From an uncultured bacterium (GTDB lineage: Bacteria > Patescibacteriota > Minisyncoccia > Phycocordibacterales > CAIZLB01), in the NCBI GenBank assembly GCA_903936565.1, contig CAIZVZ010000009.1:1-44839 (forward strand): a stretch of 44,839 bases of DNA, written 5' to 3'. The notes beneath the pieces are model-generated. The model made no database searches. It saw only the letters and a program-made list of their open reading frames with translations, and was not told the DNA's origin. The translations under genes were made by a program, and so were the position numbers. Below are positions 26,456 to 42,713 of the stretch, in pieces (position 1 is the stretch's first letter; each line of letters begins with the position of its first letter).

Positions 26456-26462
26456 ATATATT

Positions 26463-26591
26463 GTTGGCGGGGCCGCAGCCAAGCTGTCGGCACCATATTG
26501 AAACATAAGTGATTATTTCTGCTCGGCCGCAACTACGTTGCGGCACCCTGCCAAAATATAATCGCTCACTTTGTTCGCTCGTTATTTTGGC
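26463..26591. repeat. Cluster of three intergenic hairpins
   Basis: GCCGCAGC-CAA-GCTGTCGGC (about 26470-26488), GCCGCAAC-TAC-GTTGCGGC (about 26526-26544), GCCAAAATA/TATTTTGGC (26550-26591). Confidence 0.65.
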
Positions 26592-26690
26592 GGGGCGACC
26601 AGAGCTAGAACCTTTTGGTTCATTGCCCTGTAACGTCCGTTTTGATAACTAGATTGTATCATATTGACGGGACAAGAGCACCTCAAAAAG
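26588..26690. repeat. Dispersed structured intergenic repeat, copy B
   Basis: TTGGCGGGGCGACCAGAGCTAGAACCTTTTGGTTCATTGCCCTGTAA; hairpin GAACC-TTTT-GGTTC. Confidence 0.65.
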
Positions 26691-33718: not shown

Positions 33719-35044
33719 ATGGAAGTAGAGACGAATATAGGTCTAATTGGCAGTATGACGGTCATACCAGAGACTAAAATTAAGTATGTACTGTATGCTA
33801 GAAAATCGACAGAATCTGAAGAAAGGCAAATTCTATCTATTGAATCACAGGTTAAGGAAATGCTTCAACTTGCAGAACGAGACGGTTTGGAAATCGTAGA
33901 CATAAGACGAGAATCTCATTCTGCAAAAGACTCAGGACAACGCCCTGTATTTAAGGAAATATTGGAAGACATCAGAAGAGAAAGATTTAATGGAATACTT
34001 ACATGGGCACCCGATAGACTAAGTAGAAATGCAGGTGACCTTGGAAGTTTGGTGGACTTAATGGATCAGAAACTACTACTTGGAATCAAGACCTTCGGAC
34101 AATCCTTCGCGAACTCCCCTAACGAAAAGTTTCTATTGATGATTTTGTGTTCTCAAGCAAAACTTGAGAATGATAATAAAAGTATAAATGTTAAACGAGG
34201 ACTTAGAACAAGATGTGAAATGGGACTAAGGCCTGGGCAACCTCCTGTTGGATATCTAAATGAAAGACACATGGACAGAAAGTGCCAAGCAATAATAGAT
34301 CCTGAACGTGGACCGATTATCAAGAAAATGTTTGAGAAAGTTGCTTATGAGAAATGGAGCGGCAGGAAGCTATATCACTGGTTAAAATTTGATATAAATT
34401 TTAAAAGTATTAACGGTAAAAAAGGTTTATCTCTTGGGAACATCTTTTCACTATTACAAAACCCCTTCTATTATGGAGTCTTTGAATATCCATTGAAAAG
34501 TGGAAATTTCTATAATGGTAAGCACACCCCGCTTATTACAAAAGAGCTTTTTGATCAAGTTCAATCACAAGTTAAAAGTAATATTATACAAATTGAAAGC
34601 AAGGAATTTGCATTCACAAAACTAATGACCTGTGGATTGTGTGGATCTGGAATTACAGCAGATGAAAAGTTCAAGAAACAACAGAACGGCAACATCCATA
34701 GATATGTTTATTATGGATGTACAAAGGTTAGAGACCGAAAGTGCAAATGTGGATATATTGAGGAAAAAGAGCTAATTAGGCAGTTTATTGATTTGATGGA
34801 TAAAGTTAATTTTAATAATGATTCAATAAAACAGAAAATTAAATCTGAAGTCGAAAGGATAAAGAAGTTCAATAATGCAATGTTGGGCATCAAAGAAAGA
34901 ATAGAAGTTAAGGAAATGGATATAAAGAACTATGCAAAATATATCCTTAAAGAATGTACGGACATTGAAAAGCGGGACTTACTTGGCTGCTTAATTAGTA
35001 AGATTGAACTCAAAAATAAACAGATTTCCATTATTCTGCCTTAG
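33719..35044 (+). CDS. Large serine recombinase
   Basis: KYVLYARKSTESEERQILSIESQVKEMLQLAERDGLEIV resolvase domain, ITWAPDRLSRNAGDLGSLVDLMD, recombinase domain, zinc ribbon LMTCGLCGSGITADEK...YYGCTKVRDRKCKC. Confidence 0.96.
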   Translation: MEVETNIGLIGSMTVIPETKIKYVLYARKSTESEERQILSIESQVKEMLQLAERDGLEIVDIRRESHSAKDSGQRPVFKEILEDIRRERFNGILTWAPDRLSRNAGDLGSLVDLMDQKLLLGIKTFGQSFANSPNEKFLLMILCSQAKLENDNKSINVKRGLRTRCEMGLRPGQPPVGYLNERHMDRKCQAIIDPERGPIIKKMFEKVAYEKWSGRKLYHWLKFDINFKSINGKKGLSLGNIFSLLQNPFYYGVFEYPLKSGNFYNGKHTPLITKELFDQVQSQVKSNIIQIESKEFAFTKLMTCGLCGSGITADEKFKKQQNGNIHRYVYYGCTKVRDRKCKCGYIEEKELIRQFIDLMDKVNFNNDSIKQKIKSEVERIKKFNNAMLGIKERIEVKEMDIKNYAKYILKECTDIEKRDLLGCLISKIELKNKQISIILP

Positions 35045-35789
35045 TATTATTAAACTCATCTAGTTGACTAGGGTGTTCCTTTTTAAGATATCGGCGAATA
35101 ACCTTATTCATATAAGAGTTTTTGAGTCTAAAGGCTCTGACTTCTGCCATAATCTCACTAAAAGGTTGTGGTGTTTTAGATTTAGTGCAATCTGGGTCAT
35201 CAAAGTCGCCATTATGTTTTGGACATAGAGTTAAACTGTCATGCTGATGTTGGTGCATCTCATGAGCTTGACCAAGTTTAATGGAAACCAAAATCTTTTG
35301 GTAATCATCTTTTAGTTCTTCTAATACGCCCCTGTCCATTTCCCATAAAAATACATACTTAACTAAATATTCAGAACGTGGAATATTATTATCATGAATA
35401 TACCAAACAAAAAGTATCTTTTTGTTTTTCTTGTACAGAGAAGACTCCTTTATATCTTCAATTTCAGATGTCTCTTTATAGTTAATTATATTTAGGGAAA
35501 GCGGTTCTTTGACCGTAAGCTTTCCATTTTTTAAAAATTTTAAAGGACTAGTTTTAACTTCGACGTCTAAATGTTCAATGTCTGGACCGGCTATGCTGTT
35601 CTTGCCGATTCCAAAATACCCCTCTTCGATAACATAACCAACTCCCGCTTTTGTTAAAACTCGAGATTTGTCGTCCAAGTCTGTAATTGACCCCATTATC
35701 TGACGCATAGTCTTACCCTCCAAATCCTTCTTTGCTATTTTTTCCAATTCCTCAGCGGTCTTTATCTTCTTTAAATCAAGTATTGCCAT
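35031..35789 (-). CDS. MutH/Sau3AI-like type II restriction endonuclease
   Basis: LEGKTMRQIMGSI...GVGYVIEEGYFGIGKNSIAGPDIEHLDVEVKTSPLK: GxxYFGI.NS..PD and D-x(n)-ExK nuclease signature; convergent with the recombinase and divergent from the C5 methyltransferase. Confidence 0.8.
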   Translation of the reverse strand: MAILDLKKIKTAEELEKIAKKDLEGKTMRQIMGSITDLDDKSRVLTKAGVGYVIEEGYFGIGKNSIAGPDIEHLDVEVKTSPLKFLKNGKLTVKEPLSLNIINYKETSEIEDIKESSLYKKNKKILFVWYIHDNNIPRSEYLVKYVFLWEMDRGVLEELKDDYQKILVSIKLGQAHEMHQHQHDSLTLCPKHNGDFDDPDCTKSKTPQPFSEIMAEVRAFRLKNSYMNKVIRRYLKKEHPSQLDEFNNTKAE

Positions 35790-35887
35790 ATATGCGTATT
35801 ATAGGGTATAACTTGATCTTGTACAATTTTTGTGGCACAGTCTAAAAAATACTTGATCAAAATTACAGTAGGTGTTAGAATGACCCT

Positions 35888-37156
35888 ATGAAAAAAGATG
35901 ATTCTAAAAAGCTGAAGGTGGTTGAACTGTTTGCTGGTGTAGGCGGTTTTAGAGTTGGGCTTGAAGGACACAAGGGGGTTAAAAGAGCACATCATAAATA
36001 CTTTGATACTATCTGGTTTAATCAATGGGAACCCTCAACTGTAAGACAACACGCCCACGAAACGTATGTAAAAAACTTTGGAGACGTCGATGAGTACACA
36101 AACGTCGATGTGGCAAAAGTTACAGATAAAGTCCCTGACCATGATTTGTTAGTCGGAGGCTTCCCTTGCCAAGATTATTCTGTTGCAAGAAATCTTTCAT
36201 CATCGGCTGGTCTTGAGGGTAAAAAAGGTGTTCTTTGGTGGTCAATCTATAATATTTTACAAAATAAAGGCAAAAAGTCTCCTAACTATTTAATGCTGGA
36301 AAACGTGGACAGACTTCTTGCTTCTCCAGCAAAAAGAAGAGGACGTGATTTTGCTATTATTCTTTCCTCTCTTAATCAGCTGGGGTATGTAGTAGAATGG
36401 AGAATTGTGAATGCTGCAGAATACGGATTCCCTCAAAGAAGAAAGAGAATCTTTATACTTGGTTTTAAAAAAGGATCACCTATTGAAAAGAAATTTAGAA
36501 AAGTAAAAAATCCAGAAAATTGGATTACAAAAGAAGGTCTTACTCAAAATGCCTTTCCTGCAAAAGTAGTTGAAAATTTTAATTATTTTGAAATTGATTC
36601 AGATCCAGTAGTTGTTTCAAATGACTTTAACAAGGATAAACCTAAGCAATCACCTTTTTCAAATAGTGGAGTTATGTTTGATGGTAAGGTATGTACAGTT
36701 AAGGTTAACCAAAATTATGAAGGTATTTTTGTAACACTTGGTGATATTCTAATACCTGAAAAGGATGTACCAAATGAATATCATATTAAAAAGGAAGATG
36801 TTGAACGTTGGAAGTACCTTAAGGGTGCAAAAAGCGAGCCACGAAAGACAGCATCAGGTTTTGAATTCTTATACAAAGAAGGTTCTATGGCGTTCCCAGA
36901 TTCTTTGTCTAAGGCATCTAGAACTATCATTACCGGCGAAGGAGGTGCTAGCCCATCAAGATTCAAACATATAATAAAAACTCCTAAAGGATACAGAAGA
37001 CTGACGCCGCTTGAATTAGAGAGGTTGTGCATGTTTCCAGATAATCATACAGAAGGACACCCCGATATAAGAAGAGCTTTTTTTATGGGAAACGCTCTTG
37101 TGGTTGGAGTTATAGATAAACTAGGCGAATCCCTTATCAAATTGCACAGGTCTTAA
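35888..37156 (+). CDS. DNA (cytosine-5) methyltransferase
   Basis: VVELFAGVGGFRVGLEG, GGFPCQDYSVA, LENVDRLL, AAEYGFPQRRKRIFILGF, RRLTPLELERLCMFPDNHTEG. Confidence 0.97.
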   Translation: MKKDDSKKLKVVELFAGVGGFRVGLEGHKGVKRAHHKYFDTIWFNQWEPSTVRQHAHETYVKNFGDVDEYTNVDVAKVTDKVPDHDLLVGGFPCQDYSVARNLSSSAGLEGKKGVLWWSIYNILQNKGKKSPNYLMLENVDRLLASPAKRRGRDFAIILSSLNQLGYVVEWRIVNAAEYGFPQRRKRIFILGFKKGSPIEKKFRKVKNPENWITKEGLTQNAFPAKVVENFNYFEIDSDPVVVSNDFNKDKPKQSPFSNSGVMFDGKVCTVKVNQNYEGIFVTLGDILIPEKDVPNEYHIKKEDVERWKYLKGAKSEPRKTASGFEFLYKEGSMAFPDSLSKASRTIITGEGGASPSRFKHIIKTPKGYRRLTPLELERLCMFPDNHTEGHPDIRRAFFMGNALVVGVIDKLGESLIKLHRS

Positions 37157-37349
37157 TCATTTCAAATTCACAAAGACTTGACATTTGTTAATGGTACTTA
37201 TATTATTAATACATTATAAATTTTAATTATGGTTTTGGTGGCATTTTAGAATGTTATCGAGGCTTTCAAAATTATGTATACTTAAAACTTTTTTATATTT
37301 TATGTGCTGAAATATTTATTTCAGTTTTTTTCGTTTATTATTTAACTTC

Positions 37350-38930
37350 TTGGTGGTAAAAACTATCGAGATAAAAACAACAGTCATGGATACAATTAAA
37401 CAATACAACAAGGAGAACACACCGAATGCTTCAAAATTAATGGAATCGCTTAGATACAGTGGCTATGACAATAATATTGCCATATGCGACCTGATTGACA
37501 ACTCTCTGGATGCGAATGCTACAAACATCAGCATAGAAATTAACTTAGACTCTAAAAAGGATGCTTATATTGCAGTGTGTGACGACGGAAGTGGCATGGA
37601 TGAGGAAATATTAGAACAAGCCCTACGCCTAGGTTCAATTACTCGTAGAAACATAGAGTCAGATTTAGGTCGGTTTGGAATGGGTATGGTTACAGCTTCA
37701 ATATCTATAGCAAAGAGAATTGAAGTGTTCACAAAACGCAAGGACCAGGACATGCTAACAAGTGTAATGGACTTGGATGAAATGAGTACAAACAATAATT
37801 TCAACGTATACAGAGAAAAATCTACACAGGAAGAAATTTCATTCGCCCAATATCATGGTCTAAAGGAATCGGGTACAATCTTAATTCTTAGAAAGTGCGA
37901 TAAATTAACAAAACCTGGGCTCATGGAATTTGTTGATTCTTTGAAAAAAGATATCGGGGAAACTTATAGGTATTTTTTAAGGTCTGGTAAAAAGATAACG
38001 ATAAATAACAGAGACGTCGAAATCATAGACCCTATGTGGACCGATGGATTATTAACAGAAGATTACAAGCAAACATCTGAGGTCTACAGTGACGAAACAT
38101 ATGACATAAAGGTTGAAGGTTCTGATACTAAAGAATCATTTCGTGTAAAAATTTATATTTTACCTAAATTTGATCAAAGTATAATGAAAAAACTCAAGAT
38201 TGGTATAAGAAATCAAGGATTCTATGTTCTTAGAAACTACAGACAAATATCAAAAGCAGATAGTTTGGGCGGACTGTGGGAAGGACACAACTCACTCAAC
38301 AGAGTAAGAGCTGAGATTATTTTTTCTGGTAATCTAGATTCAGCTATGGGTGTTAATTATACAAAACATAATATTAAACCAATCCAGTCTGTTGTTGATA
38401 AGATACAAAATGACATAATGTCTCAAATTACTACTTTAAAGAAAAGATTTGAGAAGGCAACAAAAGTTGAGGAATCTAAAGATTTAAGTTTCAACGAAGC
38501 CGAAAGAATTATATCTCAAAAAAATAAACTACTGGACAAGGCTGACCCTGAAAAATCAGGAAAGCCAATGCCTTTGAATCCCGTAGTCAAGAAAAGAAAT
38601 ACTCATATTCAAGAAGAACCAAATAAACCTGGTAGACCAAGCTTATCTCATCTTGCGAGATTTGAGACTCACAGTTTTGGCTTAACTGGTCCGATTTTCG
38701 AAGTAGAAAAACAAGGTAAAATAACAATTATTCAATGGAATATAGATCATCCGTTTTACGAAAGATTCTTAATTCAATACAAAGATAATTCCGACTTAAT
38801 TAATGCTGTTTCATTTCTTGTATACTCCCTAGGTGAATCAAAATTAAAATATAGTAACGAGGATTCTTATGAAATGTTGGAAAATATAATGAGTACCATA
38901 TCTACAAACCTCCGAGTATTGTTAAGTTAA
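37350..38930 (+). CDS. GHKL (HSP90/MORC-like) ATPase
   Basis: AICDLIDNSLDANATNISIEI, VCDDGSGMDEEILEQALRLGS, SDLGRFGMGMVTASISIAKRIEV. Start may be MDTIKQYNKEN at 37386. Confidence 0.88.
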   Translation: MVVKTIEIKTTVMDTIKQYNKENTPNASKLMESLRYSGYDNNIAICDLIDNSLDANATNISIEINLDSKKDAYIAVCDDGSGMDEEILEQALRLGSITRRNIESDLGRFGMGMVTASISIAKRIEVFTKRKDQDMLTSVMDLDEMSTNNNFNVYREKSTQEEISFAQYHGLKESGTILILRKCDKLTKPGLMEFVDSLKKDIGETYRYFLRSGKKITINNRDVEIIDPMWTDGLLTEDYKQTSEVYSDETYDIKVEGSDTKESFRVKIYILPKFDQSIMKKLKIGIRNQGFYVLRNYRQISKADSLGGLWEGHNSLNRVRAEIIFSGNLDSAMGVNYTKHNIKPIQSVVDKIQNDIMSQITTLKKRFEKATKVEESKDLSFNEAERIISQKNKLLDKADPEKSGKPMPLNPVVKKRNTHIQEEPNKPGRPSLSHLARFETHSFGLTGPIFEVEKQGKITIIQWNIDHPFYERFLIQYKDNSDLINAVSFLVYSLGESKLKYSNEDSYEMLENIMSTISTNLRVLLS

Positions 38931-39027: not shown

Positions 39028-39126
39028 CTGTGGAAGCGGGAGTCGAACCCACATCACCTCCTCTCAAAACATCTTGATAACACGGTGCTTTGAGAGGGAG
39101 TTGTTCTACCATTAAACTATTCCACA
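39028..39126 (-). tRNA. tRNA-Gln-like gene with enlarged anticodon arm (intron-like or disrupted)
   Basis: Perfect acceptor TGTGGAA/TTCCACA with U1:A72 and G73, D-arm GTTTAATGGTAGAAC, T-arm GTGGGTTCGACTCCCGC; about 26-28 extra nt in the anticodon arm including CTCTCAAA/TTTTGAGAG. CCA not encoded. Confidence 0.6.
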
Positions 39127-39138
39127 TTACACAAGAGT

Positions 39139-39200
39139 ACGCGACTCGAGCTATGCTCTTGTTGGCGGGATCATTAAGACTCGAACTTAACGGTGATTTG
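39139..39200 (-). pseudogene. tRNA 3'-end remnant (T-arm + acceptor 3' strand + CCA)
   Basis: Minus strand TTAAG TTCGAGT CTTAA TGATCCC G CCA; no 5' half found; followed by the same 3' flank as tRNA-Trp. Confidence 0.6.
39148..39169. repeat. 22-bp exact direct repeat, left copy
   Basis: GAGCTATGCTCTTGTTGGCGGG, identical to 42624-42645. Confidence 0.9.
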
Positions 39201-39268
39201 CTTAGATATACGGCTTAGAATATAGGGTTTTTGGAAATACTCTGTTTAAGCTAGAAACAAGCTTGATT

Positions 39269-39315
39269 AATCTTATATAATCTTATATAATCTTATATAT
39301 CTAATACATAAGATT
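39269..39315 (+). promoter_or_regulatory. Iteron-type operator upstream of Fic gene
   Basis: Three tandem AATCTTATAT (39269-39298) and an inverted copy ATAAGATT (39308-39315) abutting the ATG at 39316. Confidence 0.7.
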
Positions 39316-40386
39316 ATGAAAAATAATATTTACCAAAAATTTAACAAAAGGATAGCCGCTCTCCCTGAGGAGATACATACCATTATAACTAATATTGATT
39401 TATTTAAAAGTAAATGGATTTCTGGTGCAAATTTAGGAACACAGACATTAAACAAACTTAAAAAGTCTGTGCTAATAACTTCAACAGGTGCATCTACTCG
39501 TATCGAAGGTTCTGAATTGACCGATGAAGATGTTGAAAAACTAATGAGGGGTCTTTCAATGCAAAAGATGAAAGATAGAGACAAACAAGAAGTACAAGGA
39601 TATTATGAAATACTTACAAATGTTTTTGAGTCATATCGAACTATTCCATTTTCAGAAAGCACTATTAAATTTTTTCATCGTGAGCTTTTAAAATATACAG
39701 AGAAAGATGAACTCCATAGAGGAAATTACAAGAGTGCAGAAAACAAAGTTGCTATGGTTAATTCTACCGGCGAGATAACTCAAATACTTTTTGACACTAC
39801 CGCTGCATGGCTAACACCCAAAGAAATGCAGGAATTGGTGGAGTGGACACAAGAGGCTTTTCTTGAAAAGAAATACCACCCACTATTGATCATTGGTAAC
39901 TTTATCGTTGAGTTTTTACTCATACACCCATTCACTGATGGAAACGGTAGATTGTCACGTATTATCTCAAATCTTCTACTTCTACAGCACGGATACGAAT
40001 ATATGCCATACATATCACAGGAAAAATTAATTGAAGATAATAAACCAGAATATTATGTTGCGTTAAGGCAAAGCCAAAAAACTTTCAGGACAGAGAAAGA
40101 AAATATTGTTCCGTGGCTTTCATTCTTTTTCAAAATAATTCTTGAACAATCAAGACAGGCAATTTCATTAATTTCAAAAGAAGAAGTCAATAAACTGCTT
40201 TCATCACAACAAGAAATTCTGTGGAATTTTATCTCAAACGCAAAGGGTGAAACTACTCCACTTGAGATTTTTACAGCAACAAATATTCCTCGCCCAACAA
40301 TAAATCAAGCTCTTATCAAGCTACTTAAACTTAAATGGATTGAAAAGATTGGGCTTGGACGAGCAACAAGATATAAAGTTAAATAA
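39316..40386 (+). CDS. Fic-family protein with C-terminal winged helix
   Basis: Fic motif HPFTDGNGRLSRIISNLLL; upstream inhibitory-like TSTGASTRIEGSELT; C-terminal wHTH IFTATNIPRPTINQALIKLLKLKWIEKIG. Confidence 0.96.
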   Translation: MKNNIYQKFNKRIAALPEEIHTIITNIDLFKSKWISGANLGTQTLNKLKKSVLITSTGASTRIEGSELTDEDVEKLMRGLSMQKMKDRDKQEVQGYYEILTNVFESYRTIPFSESTIKFFHRELLKYTEKDELHRGNYKSAENKVAMVNSTGEITQILFDTTAAWLTPKEMQELVEWTQEAFLEKKYHPLLIIGNFIVEFLLIHPFTDGNGRLSRIISNLLLLQHGYEYMPYISQEKLIEDNKPEYYVALRQSQKTFRTEKENIVPWLSFFFKIILEQSRQAISLISKEEVNKLLSSQQEILWNFISNAKGETTPLEIFTATNIPRPTINQALIKLLKLKWIEKIGLGRATRYKVK

Positions 40387-40392
40387 CCCCCT

Positions 40393-42516
40393 ATGTTTGA
40401 TAAAGGTAAATTAGAACAGTATAAATCTATCTTCCGAGGTCATGCTGATATATATCCAAGAAGATGGGAAAAGGGTGAAAAAAGTGGCTGGAGCCCAGCG
40501 TACTCTTTTGATTGGAACGAATTCAATGCCCATAGAGCTGCTGGTGGAACTATCAAGAATTTTGAAAATAAGACACTACTACCACTCACCGATCTTGCTT
40601 TAAGTAATCATCTGAGTGGTAAAGAAACGGTCGGTATCTATCCTATACTACCCGATAACACTTCGTATTTTATTGCAGCAGATTTTGATGAAGATGACTG
40701 GAAAGCAGATAGTCAAAAATTCGTTGCAGAATGCTCAAAAGTTAACCTGAAAGCTTATACTGAAATATCTAGATCTGGAAACGGAGCACATGTGTGGATA
40801 TTTTTTGCTGGTGCATACCCGTGTTGGAAATCGCGAGCGATAGCCCTTGAAATTATTCGTAAAACTTTCAGCTATTCAGAATTTAGTAAAGAAATAAGTT
40901 TTGATAGACTATTTCCAAACCAAGACGCAATTACTGATGGTGGATTTGGAAACTTAATAGCTCTACCATTACAGGGTGAGCGAGTTACTCATGGAACATC
41001 TGTTTTCTGTGATAATGCTAACTTTATTCCACACCAAGATCAGTGGGAATTTTTAGGGTCTATACATAAACATAGTTTAGTGGAACTAGATTCTACGTAC
41101 TGTGTGGTTATAGGGGAAGATTCGTTTATAGAAGAAATTGATACGAGTAATTCTATAGTACACATTGTCTTAGACAGCTCTATTCATATTAAAAAGAATG
41201 AACTTAATTCTAAGGTAACTGCATTTATAAAAGAAGGATTAAATATATACAATAAGGAATATATTGTTAAGAAACAACTTGGTAAGTCTATCTTTGGTAC
41301 GGAAAAGTATTTTAATTTGATACAAGATCTAGGCGACATAATTACACTTCCTAGAGGTTTTTTAGAAAGGCTAATTGAATATTTAAGTAATGAAAAAATA
41401 GGATATAAAGTCAAAGAAAATTATACAGAACATGAAAAAAATAAATTCAGTAGTTCTATTACTCTTCGTTCAGAGCAAGAAAAGGTGCTAGTCGAAATTA
41501 AAGACAAGACAAATGGCATAATTATTGCTCCACCAGGAAGTGGAAAAACAATCATGGCATTACAACTTATTTCTGAACTTTGTCTCCCAGCACTGATATT
41601 AGTAAATCGTAATCAATTACTTTCACAGTGGATAGATCGGACAGAGCAATTTCTCGGAATTCCAAAAGTTCAGATTGGCGTCATTTCTGGAGTAAAGAAA
41701 AAAGTCGGTAAACAAATAACTATTGCCACACTGCAAACACTGGCGAGGTATAAAGGTATTAAAGAAATTACAGATTCATTTGGTATTATAATAATTGATG
41801 AATGCCATCATATTCCAGCAAAAACATATCGTGAGGTTATTAATTCATTTAAGAGTAAATATTGTTATGGACTAACAGCGACACATGAACGAAAATTTGG
41901 ACAAGAAGCAGTTACTGAATTATGCATTGGACAAGTAATAGCTGAAATAGAAAATGATTCAGTGGCTCAAGACAGATCATTTAATGTTCAAATTATTAAC
42001 TCAAGTATTGAGCTACCTTTTCGATATAAAAATGATCATTATGAAATACTTGCGAAGACAATCTCATATGACACTTCACGAAACAAACTTATCCTTGATG
42101 CACTATTACCACATTTAAATCAAAACCATAAAATACTCATCCTTACGGAGCGTAAAGAGCATATTGAGGTTTTATCACTAAATCTCCGAAGCCAAACAGA
42201 AATACTGACCATTTCAGGCGATGACTCACCCAGACAAAGAAAGCTAAAACATGCACAGATAAAATCTGGTAATTTCAAAGTACTCATTGCCACAGGGCAA
42301 CTTCTTGGTGAGGGTTTTGATATGGAAGGATTCGATGCACTTGTCCTATCCTTCCCAATTGCATTTGAGGGCAAACTCAAGCAGTATATTGGCAGACTTC
42401 GCGGTACAGGCACAAAATACGTTATTGATATTAGAGACCCTCTTGTAGATTTTCTTGAAAGACAGTTTAAGAAGAGAAAGAAACTTTACGATATGTTAGA
42501 AAATAGGACAGTGTAA
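40393..42516 (+). CDS. TOTE-type archaeo-eukaryotic primase (AEP) + SF2 helicase fusion
   Basis: AEP-like YFIAADFDEDDW, EISRSGNGAHVWIFF, DRLFPNQD; helicase APPGSGKT, IIDECHH, TATHERKFG, QYIGRLRGTGTK. Confidence 0.88.
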   Translation: MFDKGKLEQYKSIFRGHADIYPRRWEKGEKSGWSPAYSFDWNEFNAHRAAGGTIKNFENKTLLPLTDLALSNHLSGKETVGIYPILPDNTSYFIAADFDEDDWKADSQKFVAECSKVNLKAYTEISRSGNGAHVWIFFAGAYPCWKSRAIALEIIRKTFSYSEFSKEISFDRLFPNQDAITDGGFGNLIALPLQGERVTHGTSVFCDNANFIPHQDQWEFLGSIHKHSLVELDSTYCVVIGEDSFIEEIDTSNSIVHIVLDSSIHIKKNELNSKVTAFIKEGLNIYNKEYIVKKQLGKSIFGTEKYFNLIQDLGDIITLPRGFLERLIEYLSNEKIGYKVKENYTEHEKNKFSSSITLRSEQEKVLVEIKDKTNGIIIAPPGSGKTIMALQLISELCLPALILVNRNQLLSQWIDRTEQFLGIPKVQIGVISGVKKKVGKQITIATLQTLARYKGIKEITDSFGIIIIDECHHIPAKTYREVINSFKSKYCYGLTATHERKFGQEAVTELCIGQVIAEIENDSVAQDRSFNVQIINSSIELPFRYKNDHYEILAKTISYDTSRNKLILDALLPHLNQNHKILILTERKEHIEVLSLNLRSQTEILTISGDDSPRQRKLKHAQIKSGNFKVLIATGQLLGEGFDMEGFDALVLSFPIAFEGKLKQYIGRLRGTGTKYVIDIRDPLVDFLERQFKKRKKLYDMLENRTV

Positions 42517-42623
42517 CCACCGAAGATTAATGCCTGTTTAAAAGACTTGAAATATTAATAGGTTCGAGTCTCTGTCCCATCCGCTCTATACAGAGCTAAA
42601 AAAATGTTATTTTAACGCGACCA

Positions 42624-42645
42624 GAGCTATGCTCTTGTTGGCGGG
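42624..42645. repeat. 22-bp exact direct repeat, right copy (spans tRNA-Trp 3' end)
   Basis: GAGCTATGCTCTTGTTGGCGGG. Confidence 0.9.
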
Positions 42646-42713
42646 CCCACGAGGACTCGAACCTCGAACTGCGGTTTTGGAGACCGTCGTTTTACCATTG
42701 AAACTATAGGCCC
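42639..42713 (-). tRNA. tRNA-Trp(CCA), CCA encoded
   Basis: GGGCCTA/TGGGCCC acceptor, anticodon arm CGGT CTCCAAA ACCG, T-arm CGAGGTTCGAGTCCTCG, G73 and CCA. Confidence 0.93.

What the first reader, a model, noticed from the sequence alone, without database searches (positions are those of the whole stretch)
39130..42645. Fic + TOTE-type primase/helicase island between tRNA genes with 22-bp direct repeats
A two-gene unit (6-nt gap) of Fic and AEP-SF2 helicase is bounded by GAGCTATGCTCTTGTTGGCGGG at both ends; the right copy is the 3' end of tRNA-Trp including CCA, the left copy is attached to a tRNA 3' remnant. This is the layout expected of an element integrated at a tRNA 3' end. AEP-TOTE primases are linked to biological conflict systems; here the pairing is with a Fic enzyme and no separate nuclease domain is obvious. 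Inference: a compact defence or addiction module.
Basis: partly seen in the sequence, partly recalled or inferred. Interest (0 to 1): 0.7.

Follow-up and report, generated by a model that had tools for sequence, protein, structure and literature searches.

The report
Fic–primase-helicase cassette at tRNA-Trp hotspot
In a tiny-genome Patescibacterium, a mobile stretch of DNA next to a tRNA gene carries a two-gene unit, a protein-modifying Fic enzyme plus a primase-helicase, and the same pairing recurs across this bacterial phylum, so the two probably work together as a defence or addiction unit; no function has been tested.

Summary
The 22-bp repeat is exact at 39148-39169 and 42624-42645, occurs only twice in the genome, and brackets Fic (39316-40386) and an AEP-SF2 helicase (40393-42516). 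The right copy is the tRNA-Trp 3' end; the left follows a tRNA T-arm-like remnant. The original tRNA-Trp 3' flank lies at ~26461-26613, so a ~16-kb composite island sits between it and tRNA-Trp. Besides the Fic pair it holds a serine recombinase, a Sau3AI-like restriction-modification set and a MORC-like ATPase. Two congeners carry only 1.5-1.8 kb at this hotspot. The Fic-helicase pair is co-mobile: in two congeners it lies on other contigs, beside a third gene, RecQ. In an unbiased Patescibacteria sample a Fic gene lies directly upstream of this helicase in 6 of 14 loci, from several Fic subfamilies; none was found in Bacteroidota or Bacillota samples. Catalytic motifs are intact in both proteins, and no nuclease domain is seen. 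It is not a TOTE system sensu stricto (no TPR, OB or TBP genes adjacent); only the AEP domain is shared. Best reading: a defence/addiction cassette with an autoinhibited AMPylating toxin and a DNA-engaging primase-helicase. Function is inferred.

The parts
39316..40386 (+). Fic/AMPylase, 356 aa, SoFic-like with C-terminal winged-helix-like tail; HPFTDGNGR catalytic motif and STRIEG inhibitory motif
   Evidence: PF02661 4.6e-13; PADLOC SoFic 3.5e-40; motifs in alignment
40393..42516 (+). AEP (PrimPol) domain (~1-240) + XPB-like SF2 helicase (~350-690), 707 aa; no nuclease domain
   Evidence: PF22548 1.4e-76, ResIII 1.2e-30; AlphaFold pLDDT 83.7; Foldseek XPB and CAPP Prim-Pol
39262..39315 (+). 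conserved operator-like leader of Fic: three AATCTTATAT direct repeats plus inverted AAGATT
   Evidence: near-identical in G004, where homology of the two cassettes starts abruptly at 39262
39148..39169 (+). left copy of 22-bp att-like repeat (reads CCCGC|CAACAAGAGCATAGCTC on - strand)
42624..42645 (+). right copy of 22-bp att-like repeat = 3' end of tRNA-Trp plus element end
42639..42713 (-). tRNA-Trp (CCA anticodon), integration target; encodes 3' CCA only in this genome of the six compared
39170..39192 (-). tRNA T-arm-like remnant adjoining the left repeat (no 5' half)
39028..39126 (-). tRNA-like gene with ~30-nt insert in the anticodon loop
   Evidence: Rfam RF00005 51.5 bits; fold z -3.15
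26461..26613 (-). displaced original 3' flank of tRNA-Trp (terminator hairpin and GGGTGCC..GGCCCCGC hairpins)
   Evidence: matches sequence directly after tRNA-Trp in G003, G004, G005
33719..35044 (+). serine recombinase/integrase, 441 aa, candidate mobiliser of the island
   Evidence: PF00239+PF07508+PF13408; PHROG integrase 6.9e-58; 72% nt homologue beside the G003 Fic cassette
35031..35789 (-). Sau3AI/MutH-like restriction endonuclease
35888..37156 (+). C5-cytosine methyltransferase
   Evidence: PADLOC MTase_II 8.1e-157
37350..38930 (+). MORC/MzaB-like GHKL ATPase

Best explanation
A mobile defence/addiction cassette. Shown by comparison: Fic and the AEP-SF2 helicase form an operon-like pair with a shared leader, move together between genomic sites in the genus, and here sit as the tRNA-proximal compartment of a ~16-kb composite island at the 3' end of tRNA-Trp, next to a serine recombinase and a restriction-modification set. 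Inferred mechanism: the Fic protein is a class-II (STRIEG-autoinhibited) AMPylator whose C-terminal winged helix represses its own operator. The XPB-like helicase with a CAPP-like PrimPol domain engages invading or abnormally replicating DNA, by unwinding and priming it. That engagement, directly or through loss of repression, releases Fic, which AMPylates a host target (topoisomerase is the precedent) and stops growth and phage replication.
For: Exact repeats at a regenerated tRNA end and a displaced original flank. Short or alternative content at the same hotspot in G005, G002, G001, G003, G004. Same pair on other contigs in G003 and G004, 77-78% (helicase) and 87-90% (Fic) identical. Homology between the G000 and G004 cassettes ends abruptly at 39262 and 42505. 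Fic directly upstream on the same strand in 6 of 14 unbiased Patescibacteria loci, against ~2.6 Fic per ~900 genes (gene number assumed): P~1.6e-12, and 6.5e-4 even with 30-fold local enrichment of Fic. No Fic domain upstream in Bacteroidota or Bacillota loci. Other toxin-type genes sit at the same position elsewhere: PIN (G278, L146), AbiEii (L112, L131), HigBA, NYN. Catalytic and inhibitory motifs intact. SoFic is an abortive-infection AMPylase (PMC12249575).
Against: No experiment. Fic occurs without the helicase (G057, where it is 68% identical to the window Fic; G005), so the helicase is not an obligatory antitoxin. About 8 of 14 helicase loci lack an immediate upstream Fic. No integrase lies within the 3.5-kb unit. 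The RecQ third gene of G003/G004 is missing here, so the unit could be a degraded remnant. The link between helicase activity and Fic activation is entirely inferred.
Confidence: 0.48

Rival explanations
1. Two independent accessory genes: a stand-alone SoFic-type toxin/defence gene and a stand-alone mobile primase-helicase that lie together only because both are frequent island cargo.
For: Fic alone next to restriction-modification genes in G057 and next to hisS in G005; helicase without Fic in G177, G355 and others, and in Bacteroidota/Bacillota. SoFic can act as a single-protein defence.
Against: Repeated adjacency with different Fic subfamilies, same strand, gaps 0-79 nt, statistically far above background unless Fic is enriched well over 30-fold at such loci.
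Confidence: 0.27
2. Replication/maintenance module of a mobile element: PrimPol-helicase replicates the element and Fic is its addiction toxin or a modulator of host gyrase/topoisomerase IV.
For: AEP-helicases are common on plasmids (91 plasmids with at least 80% coverage) and sit by integrases there; serine recombinase in the same island.
Against: No origin, partition or relaxase gene next to the pair; the pair occurs in chromosomal contigs at varied sites without other replication genes.
Confidence: 0.17
3. The helicase is a DNA-repair or recombination factor (XPB/RecQ-like processing) and Fic tunes it or topoisomerases by AMPylation.
For: XPB-like fold; RecQ as third gene in G004, overlapping by 4 nt.
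Against: Patchy (14 of 381 genomes), mobile, in island context.
Confidence: 0.08

Closest known systems
SoFic (single-gene Fic defence; Fic-HTH AMPylase)
   Same: Fic domain with HPFx[D/E]GNGR, N-terminal STRIEG inhibitory motif, PADLOC SoFic hit 3.5e-40 over residues 51-350
   Different: Far below the NCBIfam equivalog cut-off (48.6 vs 550 bits); paired with a primase-helicase; no room for a 47-aa AS1-type antitoxin gene directly downstream, where the helicase starts after 6 nt (no systematic search for one elsewhere)
AEP-TOTE domain / TOTE conflict systems (TPR-OB-TBP-Effector)
   Same: AEP domain PF22548, 257 bits
   Different: No TPR, OB or TBP gene beside it; AEP fused to an XPB-like SF2 helicase and paired with Fic
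CAPP, CRISPR-associated primase-polymerase
   Same: Prim-Pol fold, TM 0.79 to the CAPP domain; E 3e-14 by sequence; catalytic Asp/His residues kept
   Different: No TPR or PriCT; no CRISPR at the locus; helicase fused instead
XPB/Rad25 and T4 UvsW SF2 helicases
   Same: SF2 core and order of domains
   Different: N-terminal AEP replaces the XPB N-terminal parts; no Bax1 nuclease partner
PsyrTA (RqlHI)
   Same: RecQ-like third gene of G004 matches PsyrT 7e-112
   Different: The gene is absent from the window; no PsyrA-type antitoxin hit beside it

Membership tests
TOTE conflict system | AEP domain of the TOTE family | tested here: met
   PF22548 1.4e-76
TOTE conflict system | TPR, OB-fold and TBP components with the effector (definition from PMC12458937) | tested here: not met
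   Neighbours are Fic, GHKL ATPase, tRNA-Trp and a PD40 protein; no TPR/OB/TBP hits
SoFic | Fic catalytic motif HPFx[D/E]GN[G/K]R | tested here: met
   HPFTDGNGR
SoFic | [S/T]xxxE[G/N] inhibitory motif N-terminal to the Fic core | tested here: met
   STRIEG at residues ~60-65
SoFic | NCBIfam SoFic equivalog score | tested here: not met
   48.6 bits against a cut-off of 550
SoFic | Toxicity / abortive infection by AMPylation | not testable with these tools
   needs experiment
Genomic island at a tRNA 3' end | regenerated tRNA end plus displaced original flank | tested here: met
   tRNA-Trp gains CCA from the repeat; original flank at 26461-26613
Genomic island at a tRNA 3' end | empty or different site in relatives | tested here: met
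   G005, G002, G003, G001, G004
Genomic island at a tRNA 3' end | integrase within the element | tested here: inconclusive
   serine recombinase in the 16-kb island, none in the 3.5-kb unit; not shown to act on this site
Type II toxin-antitoxin pair | second gene neutralises the toxin and is always present | tested here: not met
   Fic homologues occur without the helicase; neutralisation itself untested

The most novel reading that the evidence does not exclude
A general two-gene immune design in which an XPB-like primase-helicase is the DNA sensor or processor and the gene directly upstream is an exchangeable toxin: Fic in Patescibacteria, PIN, AbiEii, HigB or NYN elsewhere.
Probability: 0.27. 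Interest if true: 0.75.

Novelty: new variant of a known kind. Interest (0 to 1): 0.52.

Why it matters
AEP-SF2 helicases are widespread on plasmids and in chromosomes, usually annotated only as DEAD/DEAH helicases, and I found no described role for them in the papers held here. A recurrent, lineage-wide pairing with AMPylating Fic toxins gives a concrete, testable role. It would also show how very small episymbiont genomes carry compact defence units on tRNA-targeted islands.

Tried and rejected
Common tRNA terminator as the source of the repeat: rejected, only two copies in the genome. Integron attC sites: considered because CCYGC|YAACAAGAG recurs at cassette borders in G000 and G004, but GTTRRRY/RYYYAAC is not met and cargo orientation relative to the site differs, so dropped. 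Helicase as a simple antitoxin: disfavoured, Fic occurs without it. Extra nuclease domain in the 707-aa protein: not found by Pfam or by fold. PsyrA partner for the RecQ gene: no hit. Literature search for Fic with primase/helicase defence loci: no paper holding the terms. The phage collection has only helicase-domain partial matches. The weak Fic-like hit in Bacteroidota L128 is a gene on the opposite strand without an HPF motif, not counted.

Full report
Observation. The repeat GAGCTATGCTCTTGTTGGCGGG is exact at 39148-39169 and 42624-42645. The two copies extend to a 48-nt, 85% match that includes the tRNA T-loop sequence. The right copy is the 3' end of tRNA-Trp. The left copy follows a T-arm and acceptor-like 3' remnant with no 5' half, and about 20 bp further left lies a complete tRNA-like gene with a ~30-nt insert in its anticodon loop. 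Between the repeats lie only Fic and the AEP-SF2 gene, six nucleotides apart.

Integration. In five congeners tRNA-Trp ends GGGCCCGC with no encoded CCA, followed in most by an A/T-rich terminator hairpin. Only this genome reads GGGCCCGCCAACAAGAGC, so the CCA and the following bases come from the inserted DNA. The original flank, a terminator hairpin plus GGGTGCC..GGCCCCGC hairpins, is found in the window at 26461-26613 on the same strand. The whole stretch from ~26.6 to 42.638 kb is therefore inserted. A further junction of the same form, GGCCCCGC|CAACAA, lies at 26470. The conserved backbone runs to ~16.4-18.0 kb. From there to tRNA-Trp the distance is 24.6 kb here, 1.5 kb in G005, 1.8 kb in G002, ~3.9 kb in G003 and ~5 kb in G001 (distances read from the match coordinates). 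In G004 the same repeat brackets a different, 158-aa gene at the same tRNA. This is a tRNA-Trp 3' hotspot with successive insertions. The Fic pair is the tRNA-proximal compartment, with its own bordering repeats. A serine recombinase at 33719-35044 is the only integrase-type gene found in the island. Whether it acts on the 22-bp repeat is unknown.

Co-mobility. G003 and G004 carry the same pair on other contigs. In G004 it stands ~0.75 kb from tRNA-Ser(GCT) with no detectable direct repeats. Nucleotide homology with G004 starts at 39262 and ends at 42505, 11 bases before the end of the helicase gene, so the mobile unit is leader-Fic-helicase. In G004 a RecQ-family helicase follows, overlapping by 4 nt. 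In G003 it is truncated at its N terminus, and in the window it is absent. The leader holds three AATCTTATAT repeats and an inverted AAGATT directly before the Fic start and is nearly identical in G004. An autoregulatory operator for the Fic winged helix is an inference.

Proteins. Fic keeps HPFTDGNGR and the STRIEG inhibitory motif, the class-II autoinhibited arrangement (classification from general knowledge of Fic proteins). The 707-aa protein keeps the AEP residues D97/D99, H133 and D178, and helicase motifs GSGKT, DECHH and QYIGR. Its AlphaFold model (pLDDT 83.7, pTM 0.60) matches the CAPP Prim-Pol domain (TM 0.79 by target) and XPB helicases. CAPPs prime and extend DNA (PMC8211822). No nuclease domain is present.

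Survey. In 381 Patescibacteria genomes drawn evenly, 14 have PF22548 over the cut-off. Fic is directly upstream on the same strand in six: G000, G164, G223, G079, G369, G325. In G423 it is tail-to-tail, and in G199 one gene away. With G003, G004, G018 and G440 (locus L067) there are ten immediate cases; the Fic proteins outside the SoFic-like group are only 18-24% identical to the window Fic. TOTE-positive genomes carry 2.6 Fic domains on average, giving P~1.6e-12 for six of 14 if ~900 genes per genome are assumed; with a 30-fold local enrichment it is still 6.5e-4. In Bacteroidota and Bacillota samples no Fic domain was found upstream within the 1.5 kb fetched. Elsewhere the position is sometimes held by PIN, AbiEii, HigBA or NYN genes, though many loci have none of these. 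These counts come from small samples and the non-Fic cases were not tested statistically.

Mechanism. Shown: the gene pair, its mobility, intact motifs and recurrent linkage. From the literature: SoFic acts by AMPylation in abortive infection (PMC12249575), and Fic toxins AMPylate gyrase or topoisomerase IV (PMC13327609, PMC7479194, abstracts only). Inferred: that the primase-helicase engages foreign or stalled DNA and that this releases Fic. The order of events is unknown. The main alternative is that two independently useful genes travel together.

Known versus new. The domains are known and the setting is a known kind (tRNA-targeted island with defence cargo). The name TOTE should not be used for the system: TOTE means TPR-OB-TBP-Effector (PMC12458937) and those parts are absent. 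I found no paper in the held library that pairs Fic with this helicase, but most subscription papers are not held.

Noticed in passing
window 39028-39126 (-): tRNA-like gene with a ~30-nt insert at the anticodon loop; removing an insert at 37/38 would give a Glu(CUC) loop. The genome has normal tRNA-Glu(CUC) and (UUC) genes elsewhere, so this one is extra: an unusually short tRNA insert for a bacterium, or a relic.
   Followed up: partly
L198:9675-9749 (own genome, C5:20074-20148): tRNA with a predicted 8-nt anticodon loop and 4-base anticodon cttt (ARAGORN).
   Followed up: no
window 35031-38930: Sau3AI/MutH-like restriction endonuclease, C5 methyltransferase and MzaB/MORC-like GHKL ATPase in a row, next to a serine recombinase.
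   Followed up: partly
L040:3217-5733 (G003): Reverse transcriptase gene with nearby genes resembling a diversity-generating retroelement (read from sequence only), close to the G003 Fic-helicase-RecQ locus.
   Followed up: no
L043:6531-8268 (G058): Fic and AEP-SF2 genes both truncated and facing away from each other with overlapping starts: rearranged remnant or assembly artefact.
   Followed up: no
L041:3497-5083 (G004): RecQ-like third gene, overlapping the helicase gene by 4 nt, matches PADLOC PsyrT and DpdF; a SocA/Panacea antitoxin-like gene lies beside it.
   Followed up: partly
L045:182-2661 (G005): SoFic-like Fic gene (49% to the window Fic) directly upstream of a gene that reads as histidyl-tRNA synthetase.
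   Followed up: no
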